Source: a virus. Taken from it: a stretch of DNA of 60,572 nt. Below the pieces are notes generated by a model, which worked only from the letters and a program-made list of their open reading frames with translations, was not told where the DNA came from and did no database searches. This document shows positions 8,734 through 59,460 of this stretch, in pieces. The stretch lies in IMG/VR virus record IMGVR_UViG_3300025647_000036, positions 1 to 60,572 of that record; one strand, written 5' to 3'. The position numbers were made by a program, and so were the translations under genes. Position 1 is the stretch's first letter; the number at the start of each line of letters is the position of its first letter.

Positions 8734-9885
8734 ATGAAAAAAATTTTAGTTCTTTTTGCATCGTCAGTATTAATGATGTTTAGCTCTTGTGATAAAGAGA
8801 TAATTACCCCTAACAATAAAACCTATATTATCAGTGAAACTGTTATTAATGGTGTAACCTATAATAAGGTTGAGGGTACCATCAATGAAAATTTAACATT
8901 TAGTTCAGATAAAAATTGGTTGTTATCTGGTGGTGTTTTTATTGATGATAACACAAAATTAACCATAAACGGTGGTCAAACAATTTATGCTGATATAAAT
9001 GTAACCACGTTTTTATCTATCAAGCAAGGTGGTAAAATTATGGCTGAAGGTTCTAACACTAATCCTATTGTTTTCACGCCCTTAAAAGATAACCCAACAT
9101 ACGGTGATTGGGGAGGTATTATCATAAATGGTAAGGCTAAATTAAATACTGGGTTAACCGCAGAGGGTGAAGGTGGTACAGGTATTTACGGTGGTAATAA
9201 TGACGAAGATAATTCAGGTGTTTTAAGATATGTTAGAGTTGAATATGCAGGTAAAATATTAGGTACAGATAATGAATTAAATGGATTCTCATTTAATGGT
9301 GTTGGTTCGGGTACCGTCGTTGAATATATCCAAGCGTATAAAGGCTCTGATGATGGTATTGAATTTTTTGGTGGAACTGTGAATGTAAGATATGCGGTTT
9401 CAACACATAACCAAGATGACGCATTCGATTGGACTCATGGTTGGAGAGGAAAAGGACAATACTGGTACGTTCAACAAGGTGTTGACGGTGGAGATAGAGG
9501 TATCGAAGCTGATAACAACTCTGATGATAATACATTAGCGCCATATTCAAATCCAACATTGGCTAACATCACATTAAATGGTGTTGATGATGGGGATGGG
9601 TTGAATACTGGTATGAGATTAAGAGAAGGTACTAAAGGTCAAATCTATTACGCATATGTTACAGGTTTCCCAAAGTACGGAGTTCGTGTATCGGAAGAAA
9701 CATCATTGAACCACGTAGTTAATGGTGAGTTGTTTGTAGCTAACTCTACAATTACTGGTAACGGTACAAATTTTAAAGATTGTTCTTCATTTGATGGGTT
9801 GATAATGACATTGAATGATGGTTGGTTTATACCTGATACAACAATTGGTTCAGGAAGTGAATGGATGAATGGCTGGACACGATGA
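8734..9885 (+). CDS. Surface lipoprotein, parallel beta-helix type
   Basis: 383 residues with a lipoprotein signal (MKKILVLFASSVLMMFSSC, lipobox ending at the cysteine, then DKE). The body is rich in G, N and D and repeats short strand-turn units with right-handed beta-helix character: LTINGGQTIYAD, GDWGGIIINGKAKLN, LRYVRVEYAG, VEYIQAYKGSDDGIEFFGGTVNVRYA. It resembles Bacteroidota cell-surface lipoproteins encoded next to TonB receptors, and its stop overlaps the receptor's start (ATGA). Probably works with the receptor in capturing a ligand. A bacterial-type gene, unexpected in a phage. Confidence 0.75.
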   Translation: MKKILVLFASSVLMMFSSCDKEIITPNNKTYIISETVINGVTYNKVEGTINENLTFSSDKNWLLSGGVFIDDNTKLTINGGQTIYADINVTTFLSIKQGGKIMAEGSNTNPIVFTPLKDNPTYGDWGGIIINGKAKLNTGLTAEGEGGTGIYGGNNDEDNSGVLRYVRVEYAGKILGTDNELNGFSFNGVGSGTVVEYIQAYKGSDDGIEFFGGTVNVRYAVSTHNQDDAFDWTHGWRGKGQYWYVQQGVDGGDRGIEADNNSDDNTLAPYSNPTLANITLNGVDDGDGLNTGMRLREGTKGQIYYAYVTGFPKYGVRVSEETSLNHVVNGELFVANSTITGNGTNFKDCSSFDGLIMTLNDGWFIPDTTIGSGSEWMNGWTR

Positions 9886-12326
9886 TTAAAAAACTTTTAT
9901 ATATGGTGGTGTGTGTATTATTCACACACACCACATTAGCCCAAACATTAACAGGTAAGGTAGTGGATGAAACAAATCAACCACTACCTTACGTTCATGT
10001 TAAATCAGAACAAGGTAATACTTTAACTAATTATAATGGTGAATACGGTCTTAATATTACTGATAGTTGTACGATAACATTTAGTTTTATTGGTTTTAAA
10101 AAACAAACAATCAAAACTGGTAAAGGTGTATTAAATGTTGTAATGGTTACTGAAGCCCAAACAATTGGGGAAGTTACTGTTAAAAGTAAAAAAAATAATG
10201 CAAGTGAAACTGTATTATTACTCGAAAGAAAAAAACTTGTGGGTATCGAATCTTCAATTGGGGGGATGGAGATGTCAAAAAAAGGAATCTCAAACGCTGA
10301 GGACGGGTTAAAAAAGCTAACAAGTATAACCTTTTCAAATAGCAGATTAAATGTTAGAGGTTTAGACGATAGATATAATCAAATAACATTAAACGGTATC
10401 CCAATCCCGTCAAATAATTCCGATAGAAAAAACATTGACTTATCAATATTACCTTTAAGTGTTATTGATAATATTAAAGTTAAAAAAACATACTCCTCAG
10501 AACAATGGAGTAATGTCGCTGGAGCACAAATAAACATTACCACACCTAATGTTAGAAAACATTTCACGGTTAATTATAAAGGTTCTTTTAATACTTTAAC
10601 ACCAACACCTAATAGTAGTTTAAACATTAGTTTTGGTAATAATAAATTAAAAAAGTTCGGACTTTTAGTTAATTTTAATTTAAACCAAGATAATCAAAAC
10701 ACTAATGGTGTTATTAGATTGGCCAATAAACAAGGGAATAGTATTTTAGATTATAATTTTACTGAAAAACTTCAACAACTTACACCATCAGCGATAATGG
10801 TTTTAGATTTTAATCATAAAGATTTAGAAGTTAGTAACACTACATTATTTATTAATCAAAACTCAAAATCTTATAGAACAACTTTAGGTTCTCATTTTGA
10901 TTATAATACTGATTTATTCACTATAAGAATTACACCAACAAACCATAATTTATTTACAGAACAAATTAAATTTGAATTAAAAAAAGATAAATTTGAAATC
11001 CGTGGTATTGGTGGACTATCATTGGTCAATAGTGGTGAAAACGGTAGAAACCAATTTGTTTACCTATATGATGGTAATTATCAATTCAATAACGTTGATA
11101 AATTGGATAATCATTTCTTTTGGAGTCAGAATAAAGAAAGTCGTATTAATTTAGGTTTGACTGGTAAATACCATATAAGAAAAACATTACACGAATTTGG
11201 TTATTCCTATATGATTACCAATAACTACTTTAATTATCAACAGGAGTATTACGACTTATTAGGTGTTAATAATGAAAACGTTAGTGTTGACCCTAACAAC
11301 CCGTTCATGTTCATTAATGGTGAAAATAGTGAAAGTTTTTGGGTTAATAATCCTGCTTCAGAAGTTAATGGGGTGATTAGAAATCATAGTGGGTATTATA
11401 AAAGTGATTTTAATAATGATAAAATAGATTTAAGTTTTGGGTCTAGATTTGAAAAAATATATCAATTAGTTGAATATAAAGACCAGTTATCACCTGTATT
11501 CACAAAATATAGTATATTGGATAATTTTGAAATATTACCTTATTTGAATGTAAAATATAAAATTACAAATAAATTGCAATTAAGAGGTAGTGGTGCGGTT
11601 ACAACAATAAGACCTAGATTTCGTGAAATGACTCCGTTCATATATACCGAGGTGTTTGCGGGTTCAAAAATACAAGGTAATCCTAATTTAATAAATTCTA
11701 CCGTATATAATGGAGATTTAAATTTAGAATTTTATCCATCTAAAACTGAGATAGTTAGTTTTACTATGTACTATAAATTAATAAAGAATCCTATTGAAAA
11801 AGTTAATGTTGCTACGGCAAGTGGTCGATTAGAGACGTATCAAAATAGTTTACAATCTATGGTATATGGAGGTGAATTCGATTTTAAAAAAAGTATTAAG
11901 AATTTTAAATTTGATTTTAATTCATCTTACCTATATTCAAATATTACTACATCAGAAAACACTTCATCATCTGTCGTTGTTACTAATATTAACAGACCAT
12001 TACAAGGGTCATCAAAATTTATGACTAATTTTGATGTATTTTACATGATTAATAAAAATAATAATATTGGTATAGTTTATAATTATGTTGGTACTAAGTT
12101 AAACTCTGTTGGTGTATTTGGATTGGGGGATATTTACCAAACACCACAACATTTTGTGAATATGGTTTATAATATTAATAAAGATAAATTTGTAATGTCT
12201 TTTAGAATTAACAATTTATTTAACACTGAATACAAACTACAACAAATGACCGATATTGGACTAATTACAACTAATAGTTATAGAACAGGTCAAGAATTTT
12301 CGGTTAGATTTGGATATAAATTATAA
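9882..12326 (+). CDS. TonB-dependent outer-membrane receptor with N-terminal CarboxypepD_reg-like domain
   Basis: 814 residues from ATG 9882; the upstream in-frame start would break the signal peptide. Signal peptide MIKKLLYMVVCVLFTHTTLAQ; then a carboxypeptidase-regulatory-like domain (LTGKVVDETNQPLPYVHV, FSFIGFKKQTI); a plug domain about 115-230 with LNVRGLDDRYNQITLNGIPIP and VIDNIKVKKTYSSEQWS; then a beta-barrel of alternating aromatic strands ending RTGQEFSVRFGYKL. This is a SusC-like receptor powered by host TonB-ExbBD. It appears intact. In a phage it could import a scarce nutrient during infection, or remodel the host surface. Confidence 0.88.
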   Translation: MIKKLLYMVVCVLFTHTTLAQTLTGKVVDETNQPLPYVHVKSEQGNTLTNYNGEYGLNITDSCTITFSFIGFKKQTIKTGKGVLNVVMVTEAQTIGEVTVKSKKNNASETVLLLERKKLVGIESSIGGMEMSKKGISNAEDGLKKLTSITFSNSRLNVRGLDDRYNQITLNGIPIPSNNSDRKNIDLSILPLSVIDNIKVKKTYSSEQWSNVAGAQINITTPNVRKHFTVNYKGSFNTLTPTPNSSLNISFGNNKLKKFGLLVNFNLNQDNQNTNGVIRLANKQGNSILDYNFTEKLQQLTPSAIMVLDFNHKDLEVSNTTLFINQNSKSYRTTLGSHFDYNTDLFTIRITPTNHNLFTEQIKFELKKDKFEIRGIGGLSLVNSGENGRNQFVYLYDGNYQFNNVDKLDNHFFWSQNKESRINLGLTGKYHIRKTLHEFGYSYMITNNYFNYQQEYYDLLGVNNENVSVDPNNPFMFINGENSESFWVNNPASEVNGVIRNHSGYYKSDFNNDKIDLSFGSRFEKIYQLVEYKDQLSPVFTKYSILDNFEILPYLNVKYKITNKLQLRGSGAVTTIRPRFREMTPFIYTEVFAGSKIQGNPNLINSTVYNGDLNLEFYPSKTEIVSFTMYYKLIKNPIEKVNVATASGRLETYQNSLQSMVYGGEFDFKKSIKNFKFDFNSSYLYSNITTSENTSSSVVVTNINRPLQGSSKFMTNFDVFYMINKNNNIGIVYNYVGTKLNSVGVFGLGDIYQTPQHFVNMVYNINKDKFVMSFRINNLFNTEYKLQQMTDIGLITTNSYRTGQEFSVRFGYKL

Positions 12327-22730: not shown

Positions 22731-22923
22731 TGGGTTAGGTACGCAAAAAATAATTACATTAGGTGATTACCATATTCTTATTGGTTATAATGAAAATATG
22801 TCATATATTAAATTTGGTGAGAATAAATGTGGATTAAAAATCACAACAACACAAAGTTTTTTAGAAAGAATTGGAAAAATAAAAACAATTAAAATAGGTA
22901 AATATTATATTTCAAAATTATGA
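22657..22923 (+). CDS. Unknown small basic protein
   Basis: 88 residues, basic (KLKKAKYRKDTTWLKYRRFKI), then a beta-rich C-terminus. It overlaps the previous frame by 74 bases, which is long, and the next start by 4 bases (ATGA), which supports it as coupled to glutamine synthetase. The true start may be internal. Confidence 0.45.
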   Translation: MKTKLKKAKYRKDTTWLKYRRFKIDGLGTQKIITLGDYHILIGYNENMSYIKFGENKCGLKITTTQSFLERIGKIKTIKIGKYYISKL

Positions 22924-24134
22924 TAAAATTAGAATATATTTGGCTTGATGGTTATACACCAGAACCAAATTTAAGGAGTAAAATTAAAGTTGTAGATAAA
23001 AATATTTTTTTTAAAGATATTAAATCGTTATTGGAGAATATACCAGAGTGGAATTTTGATGGTTCGTCAACACAACAAGCTGAAGGTCACGATTCTGACT
23101 GTATTTTAAAACCTGTCAGAATTTATAGAAATGACAATTTAGATAGGATTTATGTTTTTTGTGAAGTAATGAATCCTGATGGAACTCCACACCCATCAAA
23201 TCGTAGAGCTGTTATTAATGATGATTCAGACATTTGGTTTGGATTTGAACAAGAATATTTTATTAAAGAAGGGAAACAAGGTGTTATTTTAGGTCACACA
23301 TTTAATTCTGAACCTCAAGGTAAGTTCTATTGTGGTGTGGGTACAAATGTTGTTGGTAGAGATTTTGTTGAAAAACACTTAGAAATGTGTTTGAATTATG
23401 GTATTAACATAACTGGAATCAACGCTGAGGTTGCTTTAGGACAATGGGAATATCAAGTATTTTCTATGGGAAGTAAAAAGGCTGGTGATGATTTATGGGT
23501 GTCTAGATATTTTATGGAAAAATTATCCGAACAATATGGGTACCAAATTGAATACCACCCAAAACCATTTGGTAAATATGCGGATTGGAATGGTTCAGGA
23601 TTACATACCAACTTCTCGACTGAAAAAATGAGAGAAAAAGGTGGGGAAGACTACTTTAAAGCAATATTCCAATCTTTTGAAACAAGAAAAGACGCTCATA
23701 TTAAAGTGTACGGGTCTGATAATGATATGAGGTTAACTGGTAAACACGAAACTCAATCAATAGATAAATTTAGTTGGGGTATTGCCGACAGGGGTGCGTC
23801 AATTAGAGTCCCAAGGAATACTGCAAAAGAATGGAAAGGTTATTTAGAAGACAGAAGACCCGCTTCAAATGCTGACCCATATGAAATAATTAAAGAAATT
23901 ATTATTAGTTTAGAAATGGCTGACGAATTATCAGTTGCTCACCATAATATGTATACAAACGTCAGTACAAAAAATTTTGATGAGATTGCTTCAAAATATA
24001 ATGGGTTTTTAAATCCTGAAGAACTTTTAAAAGAGTACAGGGATGAAGATAATTATGAATTGACTGAAGAAATGATGAATTCTAAATCTAATATTGATTC
24101 TACCGAGATAAAGTTTGAAAATAATAAAAATTAA
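22920..24134 (+). CDS. glnII: Glutamine synthetase, type II (GSII)
   Basis: 404 residues. All main GSII motifs are present in order: EWNFDGSSTQQAEGHDSD, WFGFEQEYF, GKFYCGVG, GINAEVALGQWE, WNGSGLHTNFST, RLTGKHETQSID, WGIADRGASIRVPR and LEDRRPASNADPYE. It joins ammonia to glutamate at the cost of ATP. The catalytic core appears complete; the C-terminus is extended by about 50-60 residues of mostly charged sequence beyond the usual end. Rare in phages, it could supply glutamine for phage nucleotide synthesis under nitrogen limitation. Confidence 0.93.
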   Translation: MIKLEYIWLDGYTPEPNLRSKIKVVDKNIFFKDIKSLLENIPEWNFDGSSTQQAEGHDSDCILKPVRIYRNDNLDRIYVFCEVMNPDGTPHPSNRRAVINDDSDIWFGFEQEYFIKEGKQGVILGHTFNSEPQGKFYCGVGTNVVGRDFVEKHLEMCLNYGINITGINAEVALGQWEYQVFSMGSKKAGDDLWVSRYFMEKLSEQYGYQIEYHPKPFGKYADWNGSGLHTNFSTEKMREKGGEDYFKAIFQSFETRKDAHIKVYGSDNDMRLTGKHETQSIDKFSWGIADRGASIRVPRNTAKEWKGYLEDRRPASNADPYEIIKEIIISLEMADELSVAHHNMYTNVSTKNFDEIASKYNGFLNPEELLKEYRDEDNYELTEEMMNSKSNIDSTEIKFENNKN

Positions 24135-42245: not shown

Positions 42246-42794
42246 ATGAAAGTAATCTTAACAGAATCACAGGCTAAAACCATACAAGAAAACCTACAAC
42301 ATAAAAAGATGTTTCAAAAATACTGGGAACGATTCGGACCTGGTGTTGATGAGAACTTTATTAATTTGTTTGGATTTAAACGAGGTAACCTTGATGGTAC
42401 CAACATTAGTAATGTTTATGCTCATCTTAGAGAGTTTTTAGGTTATGAAAACGCAATGAAGATGACTGAAGAACTAATCCTTAATAATCCACATAAGATT
42501 GGTGAAGGCGGTATGCCTTGTGGTAGTTATAATTTTACGTTTAATTTATCAATTAATAGTGATGATGATGTAATTTATTATGTTGATGTTGAGGTTTTAG
42601 CTGAAAATCCTGATGCTAATGTTACTTTAATTACAACAGGTGAAGTATTACAATTAGGTGAAGCATTAAATGATGAAGATTTTGGGTGGGAAGTTGAAAA
42701 TGAAATACAAGATTGTGTTAATGACTATTTAACTGAAATGATAATAAACAAAACTGGTGTTAATGTAACAATTTATTCTTTAGATTGTTATTAA
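42246..42794 (+). CDS. Protein with VILTESQ leader, probable virion cargo
   Basis: 182 residues. Leader MKVILTESQAKTIQENL (L-T-E). The body is acidic with GGMPCGSYNFTFNLSINSDDD and strand-rich; no family recognised. One of three genes here that start MK(V/L)I(L/I)TES and then diverge completely. Confidence 0.7.
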   Translation: MKVILTESQAKTIQENLQHKKMFQKYWERFGPGVDENFINLFGFKRGNLDGTNISNVYAHLREFLGYENAMKMTEELILNNPHKIGEGGMPCGSYNFTFNLSINSDDDVIYYVDVEVLAENPDANVTLITTGEVLQLGEALNDEDFGWEVENEIQDCVNDYLTEMIINKTGVNVTIYSLDCY

Positions 42795-42903: not shown

Positions 42904-43641
42904 ATGGGGAATAATCATTATATTGATAAAGTTGAAGAGGTTGTAAAAAAATTATTACCTAAGTTTATTGAGAAATATGAATCTCAATACGGTTTTGATT
43001 TACCTAAATTTAACATAATTGAAATTGATGGTTATGTCCAAAATATTTGGAAAATATTTGATGGGTCTGAGACAACACCAATTTTTAATTTTATTAATGT
43101 TAAAGTAGAAATAGAGACTAAAGATGGTAGAATAGGTAGAGTTAAAAAATTAATAAACTCTTTAGTTGAAAAAACTTTAGACAGTTTAGGTTATGAGTTT
43201 AATGAAATTTATGTACAGTTTATAAAGACTAGTGATTTTGAACAAGAAAAGATTGATAAGGTTAGGAGTACTATACATAAATTACTTTTATCTAATAGAC
43301 ATTTTAAAGGATGGTATACAATGCCATATACTGATAACGATGACAAAGTAGATTGGCATGTTAGTGTATACCCAAATACTATTGACATAACTCAGGCAAA
43401 ACCAAATCCTTTAAATGATGGTACTTGTATTTATGATGTTAAGATTGTTTTAATTCCTGATAAAATTTTAGTAGGATTTGAAGATACTAATGAGTGGGAA
43501 AAAGTGGATAAGATAAATTATTTACCTGAACGTTCTTTAGATGAAATCCAAGATAAAATTACTAATTTATTATCTGATTTTATGCCAAATATATGTGATG
43601 TTGAAATTGAATACAAGACCTTAAAAAATATGTTTAATTAA
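42904..43641 (+). CDS. Unknown protein
   Basis: 245 residues, mixed alpha/beta: EVVKKLLPKFIEKYES, FLNVKVEIE-like strands, HFKGWYTMPYTDNDD. No recognised domain or leader. Converges with the cysteine-rich minus-strand gene and overlaps its end by 4 bases. Confidence 0.65.
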   Translation: MGNNHYIDKVEEVVKKLLPKFIEKYESQYGFDLPKFNIIEIDGYVQNIWKIFDGSETTPIFNFINVKVEIETKDGRIGRVKKLINSLVEKTLDSLGYEFNEIYVQFIKTSDFEQEKIDKVRSTIHKLLLSNRHFKGWYTMPYTDNDDKVDWHVSVYPNTIDITQAKPNPLNDGTCIYDVKIVLIPDKILVGFEDTNEWEKVDKINYLPERSLDEIQDKITNLLSDFMPNICDVEIEYKTLKNMFN

Positions 43642-44540
43642 TAAACATTTAATTTCTTGTCAATTCTTAATGAAGTTTTAGGGTTTTCAGACATTTCATA
43701 AAAAACGTAATCACCAACCTCAAAATCATCGTATAATTCATCCGTAATTTCATCGTTTAATTGAATTAATATTGACAACTTGTCTTCGGTTATTTTGAAA
43801 TAAAAATCCTCACTAACTTTTGATTTTTCTTCTAAATCTATTAAACGATTTTTTAATTGGTTATTTATACTTAGGTATACATATTCCGATATTTCATTGT
43901 GACCTTCCTTTACTACGTCACCAGTACCCTCACATTCATTACAATCGTATTTACCCTCACCATTACAATAATCACATTCAAACTCACCATCACCATCACA
44001 ATAATCACATTCTACATTGATATAACCCTTACCATCACAGTCAGAACAATCGCGTTCACCATCACCATCACAGTTACCACAAGATTCACCTTCTTCCTCT
44101 TCACCACTTCCATTACAATCAGAACACTCAATAACACCTGTTGAACCACAATCATTACAGTCAAGTTCATTCATCCCGTTACCATCACAATTGTTACATG
44201 TTATATTTCCATTACCATAACATTCTTCACATTCCAATTCTCCAGAACCACCACATAAGTCACATTCTACTGAAGGGTTATCTGACTCAATATTTAGAAT
44301 AAAAAAACCAAAAAGACCCTTTAACATTTTTACAATCTCATCTACGGACATACCTTTGTTTTGTAAAAAAACTAAAAATATTAGATAAGTAAAATCTTTA
44401 CTATTTAATCTATTGTTTGAAAGTAATTCTGAAATAAATTTATTATTTCTCATTTCATTATAAACATACGTTGGATTATCGGCGTTTTTAAATAAACCTT
44501 TTAATTTTGTTGATAATATTATAACTCTTGAAATTTCCAT
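43638..44540 (-). CDS. Protein with ten DnaJ-type CxxCxGxG zinc-finger repeats
   Basis: 300 residues. After an unfamiliar N-terminal region of about 90 residues come ten CxxCxGxG-type repeats, including CDLCGGSG, CEECYGNG, CNNCDGNG, CNDCGSTG, CSDCNGSG, CGNCDGDG and CNECEGTG. In DnaJ four such motifs bind two zinc ions; here up to five could be bound. There is no J domain. The acidic inter-repeat residues (E/D) are unusual. The C-terminal about 80 residues are globular. Cotranscribed with the upstream gene (one-base overlap). Role unknown: perhaps a redox or unfolding chaperone. Confidence 0.75.
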   Translation of the reverse strand: MEISRVIILSTKLKGLFKNADNPTYVYNEMRNNKFISELLSNNRLNSKDFTYLIFLVFLQNKGMSVDEIVKMLKGLFGFFILNIESDNPSVECDLCGGSGELECEECYGNGNITCNNCDGNGMNELDCNDCGSTGVIECSDCNGSGEEEEGESCGNCDGDGERDCSDCDGKGYINVECDYCDGDGEFECDYCNGEGKYDCNECEGTGDVVKEGHNEISEYVYLSINNQLKNRLIDLEEKSKVSEDFYFKITEDKLSILIQLNDEITDELYDDFEVGDYVFYEMSENPKTSLRIDKKLNVY

Positions 44541-45476: not shown

Positions 45477-45493
45477 TAATAATGTTTAATAGT

Positions 45494-46552
45494 ATGATTA
45501 GAACTCACATTAAAAAAGTTTTAAGAGAGGCTTTAGGTGTACCTAAAAACCAAGTTGAAACTTCTGTAGAAATATATAAAAAGATAATGGAGATAATCCC
45601 TAAAAATTATGATATTGAAAAATTAGACGGATTTAAAAAAAAATTTACGGGAGTATTTGAAGTTGGTGATATAACTTTTAACCATGTCAACTTTGAAATT
45701 GATATTGAGGGGATTGGTAGTGAATTAGATTTGATTGGTATGGCCACTAGTGAAAAAAGTAGATTAAGTAACGATTTTAAGCTTGAAAAACTAACCACTG
45801 GGACCTTCAACATATCCTTTAGATATGGGGTTACAACAGAAACCACAGGTGAAGATTTAATTCGGGATATGATTACTGATAAATTAGAATATATTGGTAG
45901 TATATCTCATGAATTAAAACATTTTTATGATAATAGAAAAATTGGACCAACACCTTTAAAAAAGAGAATTAAATACGAAACGGCATCAAGTAGGGCGTTT
46001 GGTAATATAACACCTATAAATGAATTTATTCATTACATTTACTACGCAAATGCCATTGAAAGTTTAGTTAGACCATCTGAGTTTGCCGCATTAGTTAAAG
46101 CTGGTGAAATAGATAAAAAACAATTTTATAAATTCTTAATATCAACTAGAACATATGATAGGTTAAATAGAATGAAAAACTATTCTTACGATATACTAAG
46201 AGACGGTATTATAGAAGACATTCAAAAAGTTAAAGATTTGTTTGATAGAGTTGGTTTTGATTATGAAGGTAAAACTGATAGTGAGATTGCTGACAAAACA
46301 ATTACATTAATAGCGGTGAATTTTGGTAATTGGATGGGTGATAGATTGAAAAATAAATTAACAACTAATTTTATTGAGACTTTTTTAGGTTTTAGAGGTG
46401 ATAAAGAAAAATATTTTAATAAAATAGTTAAAGAAATTAATAAACAACGAGAAAATCCTGAAAAGTTTATTAAAAATGAAATAAAACTTATGAATTATGT
46501 TGGGAACAACATGATTAAAAAAATATCAAAACTATACGATTTAGCTAAATAA
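45494..46552 (+). CDS. Metalloprotease-like (HELKH) protein with IKKVLRE leader
   Basis: 352 residues from ATG 45494 (another ATG lies at 45482). Leader MIRTHIKKVLREA with L-R-E. A central IGSISHELKHFYDNRK has the HExxH zinc-peptidase signature with hydrophobic flanks; the third ligand is not certain, NAIESLVRPSEFAA (about 190-205) being the likely site of an E. The C-terminal half is helical and basic. If real, this would be a packaged zinc protease acting on a host protein. Confidence 0.65.
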   Translation: MIRTHIKKVLREALGVPKNQVETSVEIYKKIMEIIPKNYDIEKLDGFKKKFTGVFEVGDITFNHVNFEIDIEGIGSELDLIGMATSEKSRLSNDFKLEKLTTGTFNISFRYGVTTETTGEDLIRDMITDKLEYIGSISHELKHFYDNRKIGPTPLKKRIKYETASSRAFGNITPINEFIHYIYYANAIESLVRPSEFAALVKAGEIDKKQFYKFLISTRTYDRLNRMKNYSYDILRDGIIEDIQKVKDLFDRVGFDYEGKTDSEIADKTITLIAVNFGNWMGDRLKNKLTTNFIETFLGFRGDKEKYFNKIVKEINKQRENPEKFIKNEIKLMNYVGNNMIKKISKLYDLAK

Positions 46553-51115: not shown

Positions 51116-51535
51116 ATGAACGAAAAAACCGACATATTTTCATATAAAAGCACATTTGACCCAAGGCTTAATATTAACTTAATTTTCAAAGAAAATCCTA
51201 ATTATGATAACATGAGGGATATTTTTGATGTTTATGGTTATGGTTTTGTTGCACCTGAATTTAAATCGATATTTATTGATGGTGAAATATTTTTAGGTGA
51301 GGATGGGTTTACATTAGACGATTTAAAGTTCATTGAAGCTCATGAAATATCACATATTTTATTAGGTCATAACGGACCAAGGTCTGAAAAAGATGAGTTA
51401 GAAGCTGATTTAGGTGCATATATTCTTCTTAAAAAATATAATATATCAACAGAAAGACTTGAAGACGAATTTGAATATAGACACGGAGTTCCTTTCTCAG
51501 AGGAACTATTAACTATGGTTGAAGATAAAATGTGA
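51116..51535 (+). CDS. Zincin metallopeptidase-like protein
   Basis: 139 residues. KFIEAHEISHILLGHNG holds HExxH and a further H; DELEADLGAYILLKKY gives the downstream E-x2-AD motif. This is the compact layout of ImmA/IrrE- or minimal M48-type zinc peptidases. The upstream strand region (FKSIFIDGEIFLGE) fits the zincin core. Its stop overlaps the start of the ADP-ribosyltransferase-like gene (TGATG), so they are co-translated. No (L/I)xE leader is obvious. Confidence 0.72.
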   Translation: MNEKTDIFSYKSTFDPRLNINLIFKENPNYDNMRDIFDVYGYGFVAPEFKSIFIDGEIFLGEDGFTLDDLKFIEAHEISHILLGHNGPRSEKDELEADLGAYILLKKYNISTERLEDEFEYRHGVPFSEELLTMVEDKM

Positions 51536-51963
51536 TGAGAGAAATTATTAAAAAAGTTTTAAAAGAGTTTACGGTAAATAAATCATCATTAATACATGAT
51601 TTACAAGTCATGGATTATGATTATGAAGATGCTCAAGAAGAATTAAAGAAACACATCGATTGGTTCAAGTCTTTACCAAAAGAAATGATGTTATACCGAA
51701 TTGTATATGTTGATGATGAATCGGATATTAATTTAAAAGAACCTGGTTCACACTATTCCTTAAATAAAGATGAGTTAGTTGAAAATCATCAATATGCGAT
51801 TGGTTATGGTGAATATAAATATTTAATAACGGTTACCGCAAAAAAATCATTGTTCGATGCCCAAGAAACCATTTCAAATAACATTCTTTACCCTAATGAA
51901 ATGGAAATTACGTTAAAAAATAAAGGTAAAGGTACTAAAGTAATTTCTATAGAAAAATTATAA
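51535..51963 (+). CDS. ADP-ribosyltransferase-like protein with IKKVLKE leader
   Basis: 142 residues from ATG 51535. Leader MREIIKKVLKEF with L-K-E. The domain reads PKEMMLYRIVYVDDESD (first-strand Arg), PGSHYSLNKDEL (S-x-x-S in place of the STS strand), then LITVTAKKSLFDA, and NEMEITLKNKGKG with an E-x-E-type pair. R...S-x-S...E-x-E is the signature of the R-S-E class of mono-ADP-ribosyltransferases. T4 Alt, of this class, is packaged in the head after leader cleavage and modifies host RNA polymerase. Shortness and divergence keep this a prediction. Confidence 0.55.
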   Translation: MREIIKKVLKEFTVNKSSLIHDLQVMDYDYEDAQEELKKHIDWFKSLPKEMMLYRIVYVDDESDINLKEPGSHYSLNKDELVENHQYAIGYGEYKYLITVTAKKSLFDAQETISNNILYPNEMEITLKNKGKGTKVISIEKL

Positions 51964-53279: not shown

Positions 53280-53687
53280 ATGAGAGATTTAATCAAAAAG
53301 GTATTACGTGAGTCAGAGGAAGAAACTGCTGAAGAGTTCATTACTCGTTTTGAAAAGGACAAGAAACGAATTGAGAAAACAATACCTAAAATTGTTAATT
53401 TCTTAAAGTCAGGTTTTGATGAATATGGCCTTCTTGATATTAGTGTTGGTGAAACAAAAAAGGCTTACGGTTCCACATTCTATGTTGATGAAAACGGTAA
53501 ATACAAACCATTCACATCAACAATTCCGACAATACGAATGCGTTTTCTTGATTTAAAAGACAGCCAGAAACGAAAGGTTGGTAATATGATTTGGGACCAA
53601 CTCGAGAATATATTTGGCATTGACCTATCATTGTACGGAACACCACTAATATTAAAACTAATCAACTTAGAAGAAAAAGAATTTTAA
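53280..53687 (+). CDS. Small protein with LIKKVLRES leader, probable virion cargo
   Basis: 135 residues. Leader MRDLIKKVLRESEEE (L-R-E). Helical N-terminal part, strand-rich centre (YGLLDISVGETKKAYGSTFY) and a helical C-terminus (GNMIWDQLENIFGIDL). No fold recognised. It is followed by another leader protein with a TAATG overlap. Confidence 0.7.
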   Translation: MRDLIKKVLRESEEETAEEFITRFEKDKKRIEKTIPKIVNFLKSGFDEYGLLDISVGETKKAYGSTFYVDENGKYKPFTSTIPTIRMRFLDLKDSQKRKVGNMIWDQLENIFGIDLSLYGTPLILKLINLEEKEF

Positions 53688-54031
53688 TGAAAGTTATTAT
53701 TACAGAATCTAAGTTTGACAAAGCCGCACAATCTTATCTAACAATGTTATTTGATGGGATGCAATTGGAAAGGTCAACACCGTTTCCTGGTAGAGACGTT
53801 TATTTCTATAACGATATCACTGAACCTGTATTTGTACTGTTTCATAATAAAATTGGTGTTAAACAACTTTCTATACATGACATTTACCTAAACCAAATTG
53901 CGAGTATGTTCAGTATGAAAACTTGGGATGAAATTGAAGATATGGTATTAAAATGGTTTAGAAAACATTATAAAGTTAATGTAAATTATTTATACTCTTT
54001 TGATGACCCTGAGTACACGTATTCAATGTAA
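53687..54031 (+). CDS. Small protein with VIITESK leader, probable virion cargo
   Basis: 114 residues. Leader MKVIITESKFDKAAQSYL (I-T-E). The remainder (FPGRDVYFYNDITEPVFVLF, LKWFRKHYKVNVNYLYSFDD) is aromatic-rich with no known family. Two cargo-type genes in one transcript suggests parallel packaging. Confidence 0.7.
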   Translation: MKVIITESKFDKAAQSYLTMLFDGMQLERSTPFPGRDVYFYNDITEPVFVLFHNKIGVKQLSIHDIYLNQIASMFSMKTWDEIEDMVLKWFRKHYKVNVNYLYSFDDPEYTYSM

Positions 54032-55307: not shown

Positions 55308-55646
55308 GTGAGAAATAACCTAACACAAAGAGATATGAAATTGTTCACCAAAATGATGAACAAGTTGGTTGCACCAATATATCCTGTGATTACTGATATT
55401 GAGACTTATTTATCTGATTTACCTGATGACACTCAACATCTTATACTCAAAATCAACACAACAATACCTGAGGGAATAACCTCAAAAAATTATTGGACAT
55501 CAGAATATGCTGACATGGACTTCTCATACTTATCATATTATTATGTTGATGAGGTTTTAACATATCTTGGAATACCAAGAAATAGTGTCAAAATAAGAGA
55601 AACATATGCATTTAACATAAATGGAGATTTAATTGGTGATTTCTAA
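55308..55646 (+). CDS. Unknown small protein with GTG start
   Basis: 112 residues from GTG 55308 (MRNNLTQRDMKLFTKMMNKL); ATG at 55335 is the alternative. The GTG is preferred because of its position after the late-type element. An MRNN-helix start resembles other members of the leader set, but without a clean (L/I)xE. Remaining sequence acidic, aromatic-rich; no family. Confidence 0.6.
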   Translation: MRNNLTQRDMKLFTKMMNKLVAPIYPVITDIETYLSDLPDDTQHLILKINTTIPEGITSKNYWTSEYADMDFSYLSYYYVDEVLTYLGIPRNSVKIRETYAFNINGDLIGDF

Positions 55647-55678
55647 TTAAAACCTATTGTTAAAATAAAATTAAGGAG

Positions 55679-55686
55679 TATTTATA
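55679..55686 (+). promoter_or_regulatory. TATTTATA element, candidate late promoter
   Basis: TATTTATA ends 4 bases before the ATG at 55691; preceded by GGAG. Confidence 0.6.
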
Positions 55687-55690
55687 TTAT

Positions 55691-56299
55691 ATGAAACTTA
55701 TTTTAACAGAATCACAAATTGAATTAATATATGAAGATATCAAACCATCTAATGTTGCAATTAATAATATTTGTAAGGCTGAAAAATTTTGTAAAGCTCA
55801 AGGTAAAATAACATTTGGTCAGTTAAAGGCACTTGTTAATTCTGCAAAAAAAGAAAGGTTGTTAAAAGGAGTTGGGGAAGGAACATTTAAAGCCATGATT
55901 AGATTGGTACCTTGGTTTATCCCACAAGTTGTGGTGGCGGGTTTTATTGGCTCGGCTGCTAGAGCAATTAATAAAATATTAAGACCCACCATCACCGAAA
56001 CTCAAAGTTATAAGTCATGGTGGGGTAAAGCAATTATGAAGTCATTCGATTTAGCTGAAGGCGAATTAAGTATTGAAGACCCATTTTCACGAATATTTTT
56101 TATATCGGATGGTTTGATGACCATGATGGATGATAGATATAAATTAAAATTTGCTAATCATATTGCCGAACTAGCGTCATCAATGCCTGATGACCAAGAA
56201 GTTCCTGAATTTTTTGTGGAGAATGAATTGAGACATTGGATAAATGATAAATTTTTATTAGACCCACCAATACCATTTAAAACTTTCCAAAAAGATTAA
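55691..56299 (+). CDS. Protein with LILTESQ leader and hydrophobic helix, probable virion cargo
   Basis: 202 residues. Leader MKLILTESQIELIYEDI (L-T-E). A hydrophobic stretch MIRLVPWFIPQVVVAGFIGS (about 75-95) could insert in a membrane. The C-terminal half (FISDGLMTMMDDRYKLKF, VPEFFVENELRHWINDKF) looks well conserved and globular. A cargo or pilot protein that crosses or sits in the host membrane during entry is a plausible guess. Confidence 0.7.
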   Translation: MKLILTESQIELIYEDIKPSNVAINNICKAEKFCKAQGKITFGQLKALVNSAKKERLLKGVGEGTFKAMIRLVPWFIPQVVVAGFIGSAARAINKILRPTITETQSYKSWWGKAIMKSFDLAEGELSIEDPFSRIFFISDGLMTMMDDRYKLKFANHIAELASSMPDDQEVPEFFVENELRHWINDKFLLDPPIPFKTFQKD

Positions 56300-56350: not shown

Positions 56351-57391
56351 ATGAGTTTAAGAACCACCATTAAAAAGGTACTAAAAGAAGAACTTGATAA
56401 TAAAAAAGGTATTAATGATTTAGATGAATCAACCTTAATTACTTATCAAACTTTATTAAATAAAATTCTTAAGAAAAAATATGATTGGTTTAAAGGTATT
56501 AGACTTGATAAGGTTGGTATCAATGAAAAGGTGGATTATTTATATTTGAAAGGTGTTATATTTGTCGATGAAGATTGGGGTGGAAACCAATGGGTTGAAT
56601 ACAATTATACTAAACCAATTCCTGACTCAAAAGAAGATTTGTCATTTGGTGATATGATTAGTGGAGGTTTAAGTAAAGAAATTCAAAACAAAATTAAAAC
56701 AATATATTCAGTTATTTCTGGTGAAAAATTACCTCGTTATACATCATTTAGTTGGTTGGATGTTGAGTTGGTGCATGATGGAAAAATAAACGAACAAGAT
56801 GATTTTTTATTATCTTTAATGAAACAAATTATGGACACTAATAAGGAAAATAAAAATGAAACACCTACAGAATCAAAACCTTTAGGTATTGGTGTGGTTG
56901 GTTCAGGATGGAAATCATGTAAAGCTTGGAATAGTAAAGGTGGTTTATCTAAATGGGGTGATAAGATTCAAATGAGTAAATCAAGTAATAATTTCACAAT
57001 ATCGTACAAAGGTCCTAGTAGTGGTTTAAGTATCGCTCACGCCGCAGGTGGTGGTGACACTATACATCAGTTGTATAACGTTCTTATATGTGAAATAAAT
57101 CCTTTTTTAGCAACAACTAAAGCCAAACCAAACATTGACAACATTCAAGTCAGTGGTGGTAAAGAAGGTGGTAAATCTACTTTAAAAATCTCAGTTCCTC
57201 TTGAGAGTAGTGATGAACACTATCAGTTAGATAGAAGAGGCGGTTGGAATCACGACCCAGGTTCATCTAAGATGGATGAGAAATGTAAGAAAATCAAAAA
57301 CTCAGGTGGTAAATGTGAGGGTTCCGTAAGAAATGTTGCGTCAGGACCATTCGGTAAAATAACCGAATACTTTATCACTCACACAATGTAA
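56351..57391 (+). CDS. Protein with IKKVLKEE leader, probable virion cargo
   Basis: 346 residues. Leader MSLRTTIKKVLKEEL (L-K-E). A linker-like E/N/K region (about 165-180, TNKENKNETPTESKP) divides two parts. The C-terminal part (GSGWKSCKAWNSKGGLSKWG, GLSIAHAAGGGDTIHQLYNV, RRGGWNHDPGS) is G/S/W-rich with several Cys and His, suggesting an enzyme or binding domain not recognised here. Confidence 0.7.
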   Translation: MSLRTTIKKVLKEELDNKKGINDLDESTLITYQTLLNKILKKKYDWFKGIRLDKVGINEKVDYLYLKGVIFVDEDWGGNQWVEYNYTKPIPDSKEDLSFGDMISGGLSKEIQNKIKTIYSVISGEKLPRYTSFSWLDVELVHDGKINEQDDFLLSLMKQIMDTNKENKNETPTESKPLGIGVVGSGWKSCKAWNSKGGLSKWGDKIQMSKSSNNFTISYKGPSSGLSIAHAAGGGDTIHQLYNVLICEINPFLATTKAKPNIDNIQVSGGKEGGKSTLKISVPLESSDEHYQLDRRGGWNHDPGSSKMDEKCKKIKNSGGKCEGSVRNVASGPFGKITEYFITHTM

Positions 57392-58298: not shown

Positions 58299-58829
58299 AT
58301 GAATCAGAAGGGTAAACAAAGTTTATTAAAGTTGTATCAAACACAGGGGTTGTATGACACCAGCAGAATTACTGGATTAAAAAGTTATGATATTATTAAC
58401 ATTTTAAATCAACCTTTAGACACTCAATTATCTTATGATTTGTTATTTGATATGTTGAGATATGATGTTTTACCAAAAAAATATAACGACATTGAATTTA
58501 CCATTGGTAATGACGGTGTTTGGTACCTTGACAAAACATTTGATATGGGTGGTGACACATATATGAAAGTATATTCAATGGCAACACCATTTTGGGACGG
58601 AAACGACGGATTACCTTTTGACACAACAAACTACACTATATTTGATAAATCAGATGATAAGAAAATATCCGAAGGGGACGTTGAGTTATACGACTTTGCT
58701 GAAGCCAGTGGAAACTTTGAAAATATAACTGAACTAATTAAGTGGTATAAAAACTTTTATTTACCTCACATTCAAAAGTTTTTTAATAAACATTATAATA
58801 GAATTTTAAAGTATGAATCTGAGGGATAA
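58299..58829 (+). CDS. Unknown protein
   Basis: 176 residues. MNQKGKQSLLKLYQTQGLYD, then ISRITGL-like helix, and FTIGNDGVWYLDKTFDMGGD. The C-terminal helix ends NKHYNRILKYESEG. No family. Its end overlaps the next, leader-bearing gene by 17 bases. Confidence 0.65.
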   Translation: MNQKGKQSLLKLYQTQGLYDTSRITGLKSYDIINILNQPLDTQLSYDLLFDMLRYDVLPKKYNDIEFTIGNDGVWYLDKTFDMGGDTYMKVYSMATPFWDGNDGLPFDTTNYTIFDKSDDKKISEGDVELYDFAEASGNFENITELIKWYKNFYLPHIQKFFNKHYNRILKYESEG

Positions 58830-59460
58830 TATAAAACAAATACTTAGAGAAGAAGTTACAAAACGTTTTGAAAGACCATCTCCTAACATGGAGAAACTAA
58901 TCTATAATTGGTTAGACAAATACGTTTCAAATAGCCAAATGTATCAAGAGAAATCTTGGGAAAGTAGAACAGATTTTACTTGGTGTAAAGATGGTAAAGA
59001 AATCATGCAGGTGATTCTATTTTTTAACACTGATGAAACCGTTTTTGATGACAAAAGAAAGACTGAAGAAAGAGATTTTGAAGAGGGTTCATTATGGATT
59101 CCAAAGGATATCATTAAAAGCATGTTAAGTTATTTACCCGTTAGACAAAATTATTTAAATTATTTAATTGAAGAATGGTTTGAGGATAAGTTTGGTTCTG
59201 AGATAAATACTAAAATGAATCGTGACGACATCTTTATTCATGAGTTTAAAGCTTATCCTGATACAGCAAGTGTTTGTGTTCCACCAATGAAAAAACCTGA
59301 AGATGTTACTGAGGAAGAAATGATAGAGTTTATTCTTAAAACTACATTATATAAAAGAAATGATTTATTAAGACATGAAGAAGAGGAACCTGGATTTATA
59401 GAAAAAACTTATCTACAGAAAATTCGTAATAAAAAGAAAGAAGAATTAGAAAACCAATAA
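58813..59460 (+). CDS. Protein with NIKQILREE leader, probable virion cargo
   Basis: 215 residues. Leader MNLRDNIKQILREEV (L-R-E). The rest is acidic: RTDFTWCKDGKEIMQVILFF, SLWIPKDIIKSMLSYLPVRQ and a C-terminal K/E helix. No family recognised. One base from the next gene. Confidence 0.7.
   Translation: MNLRDNIKQILREEVTKRFERPSPNMEKLIYNWLDKYVSNSQMYQEKSWESRTDFTWCKDGKEIMQVILFFNTDETVFDDKRKTEERDFEEGSLWIPKDIIKSMLSYLPVRQNYLNYLIEEWFEDKFGSEINTKMNRDDIFIHEFKAYPDTASVCVPPMKKPEDVTEEEMIEFILKTTLYKRNDLLRHEEEEPGFIEKTYLQKIRNKKKEELENQ

What the first reader, a model, noticed from the sequence alone, without database searches (positions are those of the whole stretch)
51535..51963. Packaged ADP-ribosyltransferase candidate, a possible functional counterpart of T4 Alt
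The 142-residue protein combines an IKKVLKE leader with an R...S-x-x-S...E-x-E layout (LYRIVYV, GSHYS, NEMEITL). T4 Alt is a head-packaged ADP-ribosyltransferase injected to modify host RNA polymerase. The analogy covers both the leader and the fold, although the sequences are unrelated by eye.
Basis: partly seen in the sequence, partly recalled or inferred. Interest (0 to 1): 0.8.

Follow-up and report, generated by a model that had tools for sequence, protein, structure and literature searches.

The report
Tiny phage ADP-ribosyltransferase with packaging leader
A large phage, probably infecting Bacteroidota, encodes a small enzyme with the fold and key residues of ADP-ribosyltransferases behind a short detachable N-terminal tag of the kind that sends proteins into T4 phage heads, so it is probably carried in the virus particle and injected to modify a host molecule early in infection.

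Summary
The ORF is real: 142 codons at 51535-51963, with single-copy homologues in all 12 related records tested. No sequence library recognises it. Two AlphaFold2 models from members 40% identical (pLDDT 90) match ADP-ribosyltransferase (ART) folds almost exclusively. Arg55 and Glu122-x-Glu124 are invariant in 37 homologues, and the aligned ranges put them on the catalytic Arg and Glu of cholera and pertussis toxins.

The leader is also real. IKKVLKE-type peptides start five otherwise unrelated window proteins and occur nowhere else in the predicted proteins. ART homologues carry different leaders, most with L/I-x-E near the N-terminus, T4's prohead-protease motif. Of the 12 records, 9 encode a T4 gp21-type protease and 8 a gp23 capsid protein whose T4 cleavage site aligns with 'INE|A'.

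Best explanation: a head-packaged, injected mono-ART, analogous to T4 Alt in delivery and fold but not a detectable member of its family. Packaging, catalysis and target are inferred, not shown. The wider leader system (dozens of candidate payload proteins per phage) may matter more than the enzyme.

The parts
51535..51963 (+). 142-aa predicted mono-ADP-ribosyltransferase with N-terminal leader
51535..51567 (+). leader MREIIKKVLKE (residues 1-11); candidate capsid-targeting sequence ending in an L-x-E prohead-protease site; low pLDDT in residues 1-8
   Evidence: T4 rule L/I-X-E in PMC9026906
51697..51699 (+). Arg55 on strand 1 (LYR), predicted NAD-binding/catalytic Arg
   Evidence: invariant in 37 homologues; register with cholera Arg7 and pertussis Arg9 inferred
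51745..51759 (+). GSHYS (residues 71-75), strand-2 motif; G71 and H73 invariant, S72 and S75 variable
51898..51906 (+). Glu122-x-Glu124, predicted catalytic bi-glutamate
   Evidence: both Glu invariant, middle residue free; register with cholera 110/112 and pertussis Glu129 inferred
51116..51535 (+). upstream gene, 139 aa with HEISH: predicted metallopeptidase; stop overlaps the ART start; same pair in the nearest relative (L015)
   Evidence: (phrog_87 metallo-protease, E 1.2e-5)
45482..46552 (+). unrelated protein with the same leader type (HIKKVLREA); contains HELKH
53280..53687 (+). unrelated protein with the same leader type (MRDLIKKVLRES)
56351..57391 (+). unrelated protein with the same leader type (TIKKVLKEE)
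58813..59460 (+). unrelated protein with the same leader type (NIKQILREE)
55691..56299 (+). protein with the second leader type (MKLILTESQ); its homologues L061-L068 are fused to the ART domain
53687..54031 (+). protein with the second leader type (MKVIITESK)
42246..42794 (+). protein with the second leader type (MKVILTESQ)

Best explanation
The gene encodes a minimal mono-ADP-ribosyltransferase: an N-terminal two-helix segment plus a catalytic core of about 95 residues with R55, a GxH[YF]S strand and E122-x-E124. It sits behind a cleavable capsid-targeting leader. Proposed mechanism: the leader docks the protein to the prohead core; a T4 gp21-type protease cuts after L-K-E at residue 11 during head maturation; the freed enzyme stays in the head with the DNA, enters the host at infection, and uses host NAD+ to ADP-ribosylate a host component, most likely on arginine given E-x-E, before phage genes are expressed. 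Shown by computation: the ORF, family conservation, the predicted ART fold, the register of the catalytic residues (by end offsets), leader sharing and swapping, and gp21/gp23 genes in relatives. Inferred: catalysis, cleavage, packaging, injection, target.
For: Fold: AlphaFold2 pLDDT 90.7 and 90.0 for a homologue 40% identical. The VIA-align lists are filled almost entirely by the ART superfamily: TreX Z 6.8-6.9, TreTu 6.5, EcPltA 5.8-6.1, cholera A1 5.5-5.7, pertussis S1 5.5-5.8, Tpt1 5.5-5.6. The aligned range starts 49->1 and ends 142->130 on cholera A1, which places R55 on Arg7 and E122/E124 on 110/112. On pertussis S1 (48->2, 142->147) R55 falls on 9 and E124 on 129. The second model gives the same register. 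Conservation. Leader: strictly N-terminal and shared by unrelated proteins; homologues carry different leaders, most with L/I-x-E (MKILPILSE, MKLLHLLTEE, MRLISVLKEE, MKELIRKILKEE). In L061-L068 the ART is the C-terminal part of a longer protein with LDE|SYIRLSED or IKE|SYVRLTED at the junction, while standalone L057 reads ILKEE|SYIRLSED. Relatives have Peptidase_S77 (9 of 12) and Gp23 (8 of 12) with the catalytic His and Ser regions conserved, and T4 gp23 LTE65|A aligns with INE|A. T4 gp24 begins MAKINELLRES, ipIII MKTYQEFIAE and Alt MELITEL.
Against: No sequence-level link to any known ART. VIA Z of 5-7 is modest and Foldseek E-values against the PDB exceed 0.01. The classical STS serine is not invariant. 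Some homologues (L047, L052, L064, L070, L071) lack an L-x-E leader. The window itself is a fragment without head genes. No virion proteomics was available. The catalytic-residue register was read from alignment ends, not residue by residue.
Confidence: 0.62

Rival explanations
1. It is an active ART made inside the infected cell, like T4 ModA/ModB, and is not packaged. The leader does something else, such as docking to a phage complex or membrane.
For: Several homologues have no L-x-E leader. Jumbo phages of all kinds encode ARTs, mostly not known to be packaged (PMC7824862).
Against: The leader is shared with many unrelated proteins, matches the cleavage rule of a protease found in 9 of 12 records, and is disordered in the model.
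Confidence: 0.22
2. An ART-fold protein that binds NAD+ or ADP-ribose without transferring it (as suggested for IcmQ), or that only hydrolyses NAD+, for example as an NAD-depleting effector.
For: IcmQ is a top-5 fold match (Z 6.1-6.2) and the NADase toxins Tse6 and Tne2 are listed. The Ser motif is degenerate.
Against: R55 and both Glu of E-x-E are invariant with a free middle residue, which fits selection on transferase chemistry.
Confidence: 0.12
3. A Tpt1/KptA-like RNA 2'-phosphotransferase used in RNA repair.
For: Tpt1 structures are matched at Z 5.5-5.6, and some jumbo phages carry KptA-type ARTs (PMC7824862).
Against: As I know it, the Tpt1 active site has no E-x-E and uses several Arg/His not seen here. 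There is no Pfam match even at E 10.
Confidence: 0.03
4. Not an ART: the fold match is a common small alpha/beta arrangement and the motif is chance.
For: Z below 8 can be a shared arrangement (note). The loose motif occurs in 10 of 63 window proteins.
Against: Two independent models return almost only ART-superfamily structures, and the conserved residues fall on the known catalytic positions in cholera and pertussis toxins.
Confidence: 0.05

Closest known systems
T4 Alt (head-packaged RNA-polymerase ADP-ribosyltransferase)
   Same: Predicted ART with LYR and NEMEx[IL]L contexts like Alt's LYRSQ and NEMEVIL; short N-terminal peptide with an L/I-x-E site (Alt MELITEL); related phages have the T4 head protease.
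   Different: 142 aa against 682; no detectable homology (hhalign probability 3%; PF03496 absent in 9 records); GxH[YF]S instead of VSTS; target unknown; packaging not shown.
T4 internal proteins IPI-IPIII with capsid targeting sequences
   Same: About 10-residue N-terminal leader ending in L/I-x-E, shared by otherwise different proteins.
   Different: Leaders here are of several unrelated sequence types and occur on many more proteins; targeting not tested.
Rhs-borne ART toxins TreX/TreTu
   Same: Best fold matches; similar small size of the catalytic domain.
   Different: Delivered by bacterial Rhs proteins with immunity partners; none seen here; 11-16% identity.
Tenacibaculum phage PTm1 hypothetical protein (55398-55880; probably A0A5S9HX97)
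   Same: Fold match in the viral library (E 1.7e-4); starts MYKTLKYIAES and has a YRG motif.
   Different: No detectable sequence relation to this family.

Membership tests
ADP-ribosyltransferase superfamily (R-S-E type) | ART fold | tested here: met
   Two AlphaFold2 models; VIA lists almost wholly ART; still a prediction
ADP-ribosyltransferase superfamily (R-S-E type) | Arg on strand 1 | tested here: met
   R55 invariant, 37/37; aligned range puts it on cholera Arg7
ADP-ribosyltransferase superfamily (R-S-E type) | Ser-Thr-Ser motif on strand 2 | tested here: inconclusive
   GxH[YF]S: S75 is Ser in 32/37, Ala or Gly in 5; H73 invariant
ADP-ribosyltransferase superfamily (R-S-E type) | E-x-E with catalytic Glu | tested here: met
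   E122 and E124 37/37, middle residue variable
ADP-ribosyltransferase superfamily (R-S-E type) | NAD+-dependent transfer activity | not testable with these tools
   needs an assay
T4 Alt family (PF03496-like) | sequence homology to the Alt catalytic domain | tested here: not met
   no Pfam match at E 10; hhalign aligns only LPxxxxLYR, probability 3%
T4 Alt family (PF03496-like) | present in the virion and injected | not testable with these tools
   no virion proteomics found
T4-type capsid-targeted proteins | short N-terminal leader with L/I-x-E site | tested here: met
   MREIIKKVLKE; motif strictly N-terminal; rule from PMC9026906
T4-type capsid-targeted proteins | gp21-type prohead protease in the same phage | tested here: inconclusive
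   9 of 12 records, all carrying the ART family; the window is a fragment without head genes
T4-type capsid-targeted proteins | leader is cleaved and targets a cargo into heads | not testable with these tools
   needs an experiment
Tpt1/KptA | RNA 2'-phosphotransferase active site | not tested
   only fold similarity seen

The most novel reading that the evidence does not exclude
T4-related large phages of Bacteroidota load dozens of different enzymes into their heads. Each carries one of several interchangeable leaders (IKKVLKE, LTESDL..VKRVI.E, MK[IV]I[IL]TESQ, NLQENI.RI.E..G) or sits in a polyprotein cut by the prohead protease. This ART is one cargo of that injected arsenal, founding a new minimal ART family.
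Probability: 0.45. Interest if true: 0.78.

Novelty: new variant of a known kind. Interest (0 to 1): 0.57.

Why it matters
If true, head-packaged ADP-ribosyltransferases are not confined to the Alt lineage of T4-like phages but arose separately, with a different and much smaller enzyme, in large phages likely infecting Bacteroidota. The leader rule would let one read from sequence which of the hundreds of unknown proteins of such phages enter the host first. That makes a long-standing question (what do jumbo phages inject, and why?) directly testable by virion proteomics.

Tried and rejected
No match in Pfam, PHROGs, NCBIfam or PDB sequences above chance, for single proteins or profiles. No relative was found among the annotated phages by tblastn: one weak spurious hit. 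None was found in the one genome-contig scan. I tested whether the motif layout alone is significant: it is not. I tested Alt homology with a 9-sequence Alt profile: only a 25-column stretch around the Arg aligned. I tested a conserved partner gene: the metallopeptidase-ART pair is seen only in the window and L015, and other neighbourhoods vary. PTm1 and Flavobacterium phage immuto have no member of this family by profile. NNILYP conservation is partly a product of the search pattern used and was not used as evidence; E122 and E124 are outside the pattern NNILYPN, though both lie inside the second pattern (EMEIT[VL]K), which fetched a minority of loci. L011-L013 carry an in-frame stop and were left out. 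I did not find virion proteomics or a description of these leaders in the paper library.

Full report
Observation. The ORF at 51535-51963 (+) is real. Its ATG overlaps the stop of the upstream gene. All three named motifs are present. As a bare pattern, R..S-x-x-S..E-x-E means little: 10 of 63 window proteins of 100-400 aa match a loose form.

Family. A scan of viral contigs gave 70 relatives, one copy in each of the 12 records searched, and none in the genome-contig scan. Alignment A2 (37 sequences, 38-68% identical to the window protein) leaves Y54, R55, G71, H73, L81, E122, E124 and G131 invariant. The residue between the two Glu varies freely (Q, N, M, K, H, L).

Fold. AlphaFold2 with A2 gave pLDDT 90.7, with low confidence only in residues 1-8, the leader. 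Foldseek's PDB list starts with cholera toxin A1. VIA-align gave TreX Z 6.8, TreTu 6.5, IcmQ 6.1, LT-IIb 5.9, EcPltA 5.8, cholera A1 5.7, Tpt1 5.6 and pertussis S1 5.5, with rmsd about 3 A over 80-90 residues. A second model from a homologue 40% identical gave the same families (TreX 6.9, EcPltA 6.1, pertussis S1 5.8, ParT 5.2 and PARPs). These Z values are modest, but the lists hold almost nothing outside the ART superfamily.

Register of the active site. The aligned range begins at residue 49 on cholera residue 1 and ends at 142 on 130. Without gaps near the ends this puts R55 on Arg7 and E122/E124 on 110/112. On pertussis S1 (48 on 2, 142 on 147) R55 falls on 9 and E124 on 129. The second model gives the same. 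Arg7 and E129 are named as active-site mutants in entry titles in those lists; 110/112 and Arg9 rest on my knowledge. E-x-E, rather than Q-x-E, points to arginine as acceptor (general knowledge of mono-ARTs).

Leader. The motif I[KRQN][KRQN][IVL][LI][KRTSN]E occurs five times in the first 15 residues of window proteins and never elsewhere; in the 261-kb relative (G003) the counts are four and zero. In pairs of non-homologous proteins, N-terminal 24-mers score 35 or more in 12 window pairs (internal segments: 2, 0, 0) and in 88 G003 pairs (16, 5, 11). Some of the G003 pairs are signal peptides. Other leader types recur: [IV][RK]LTESDL.R[IL]VKRVI.E, MK[IV]I[IL][TS]ESQ and MNLQENI.RI.E. ART homologues swap leaders: MKILPILSE, MKLLHLLTEE, MRLISVLKEE, MKKIIEKILKEE; a few have none. 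In L061-L068 the ART follows a homologue of window gene 55691-56299 in one chain, with LDE|SYIRLSED or IKE|SYVRLTED at the junction, while the standalone L057 starts MKELIRKILKEESYIRLSED. This is what a proteolytically processed cargo would look like.

Why the leader may mean packaging. T4 gp21 cuts after L/I-X-E, Alt loses a short N-terminal peptide, and the first ten residues of IPIII suffice for head targeting (PMC9026906). Of the 12 records with this ART, 9 have a gp21-family protease above Pfam's cut-off and 8 a Gp23 capsid protein; the window and two others are fragments without head genes. The protease keeps T4's ELNHP and SSRG regions, and T4 gp23's LTE65|A aligns with INE|A in the relatives. 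T4 gp24 begins MAKINELLRES, close to MRDLIKKVLRES in the window. The isolated Tenacibaculum phage PTm1 has an unrelated-by-sequence protein that starts MYKTLKYIAES, has YRG, and probably corresponds to viral fold hit 4.

Working model and limits. Shown by computation: ORF, family, conservation, predicted fold, register, leader sharing, protease in relatives. Inferred: NAD+ chemistry (about 0.8 likely), cleavage and packaging (about 0.7), injection, and a host target such as RNA polymerase or the translation apparatus (open). Against: leaderless homologues, a degenerate Ser motif, and no experiment.

Comparison. It works like Alt in the model, but it is not a detectable member of Alt's family. 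Jumbo-phage ARTs are known in general (PMC7824862). I found no description of this family or of these leaders in the open library, which does not hold most subscription papers.

Noticed in passing
window 9861-12326: An 821-aa TonB-dependent receptor with carboxypeptidase-regulatory and Plug domains, next to a secreted lipoprotein-like gene (8734-9885): very unusual for a phage; could be a host-derived uptake or exclusion system, or a chimeric contig.
   Followed up: partly
window 51116-51535: Small HExxH metallopeptidase-like protein, translationally coupled to the ART gene; the pair is kept in L015. No L-x-E leader at its start.
   Followed up: partly
loci L084-L097 (261-kb relative): At least four recurrent N-terminal leader types on dozens of unrelated proteins, including about ten copies of [IV][RK]LTESDL.R[IL]VKRVI.E and five of MNLQENI.RI.E.
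   Followed up: partly
L011-L013, position about 6106: The ART gene carries an in-frame TAA in this lineage.
   Followed up: no
window 22920-24134: Glutamine synthetase gene in a phage (PF00120, E 1.7e-15), with thioredoxin, glutaredoxin, DnaJ, SmpB-like and nucleotide-sugar genes nearby.
   Followed up: no
window 43638-44540 (-): Long run of CxxCxGxG-like repeats (DnaJ zinc-finger style) in a 300-aa protein without a J domain.
   Followed up: no
window 55691-56299: This protein family is shared with 635-735 kb huge phages from metagenomes (LR756501, LR756502, LR745206; 32-35% identity).
   Followed up: no
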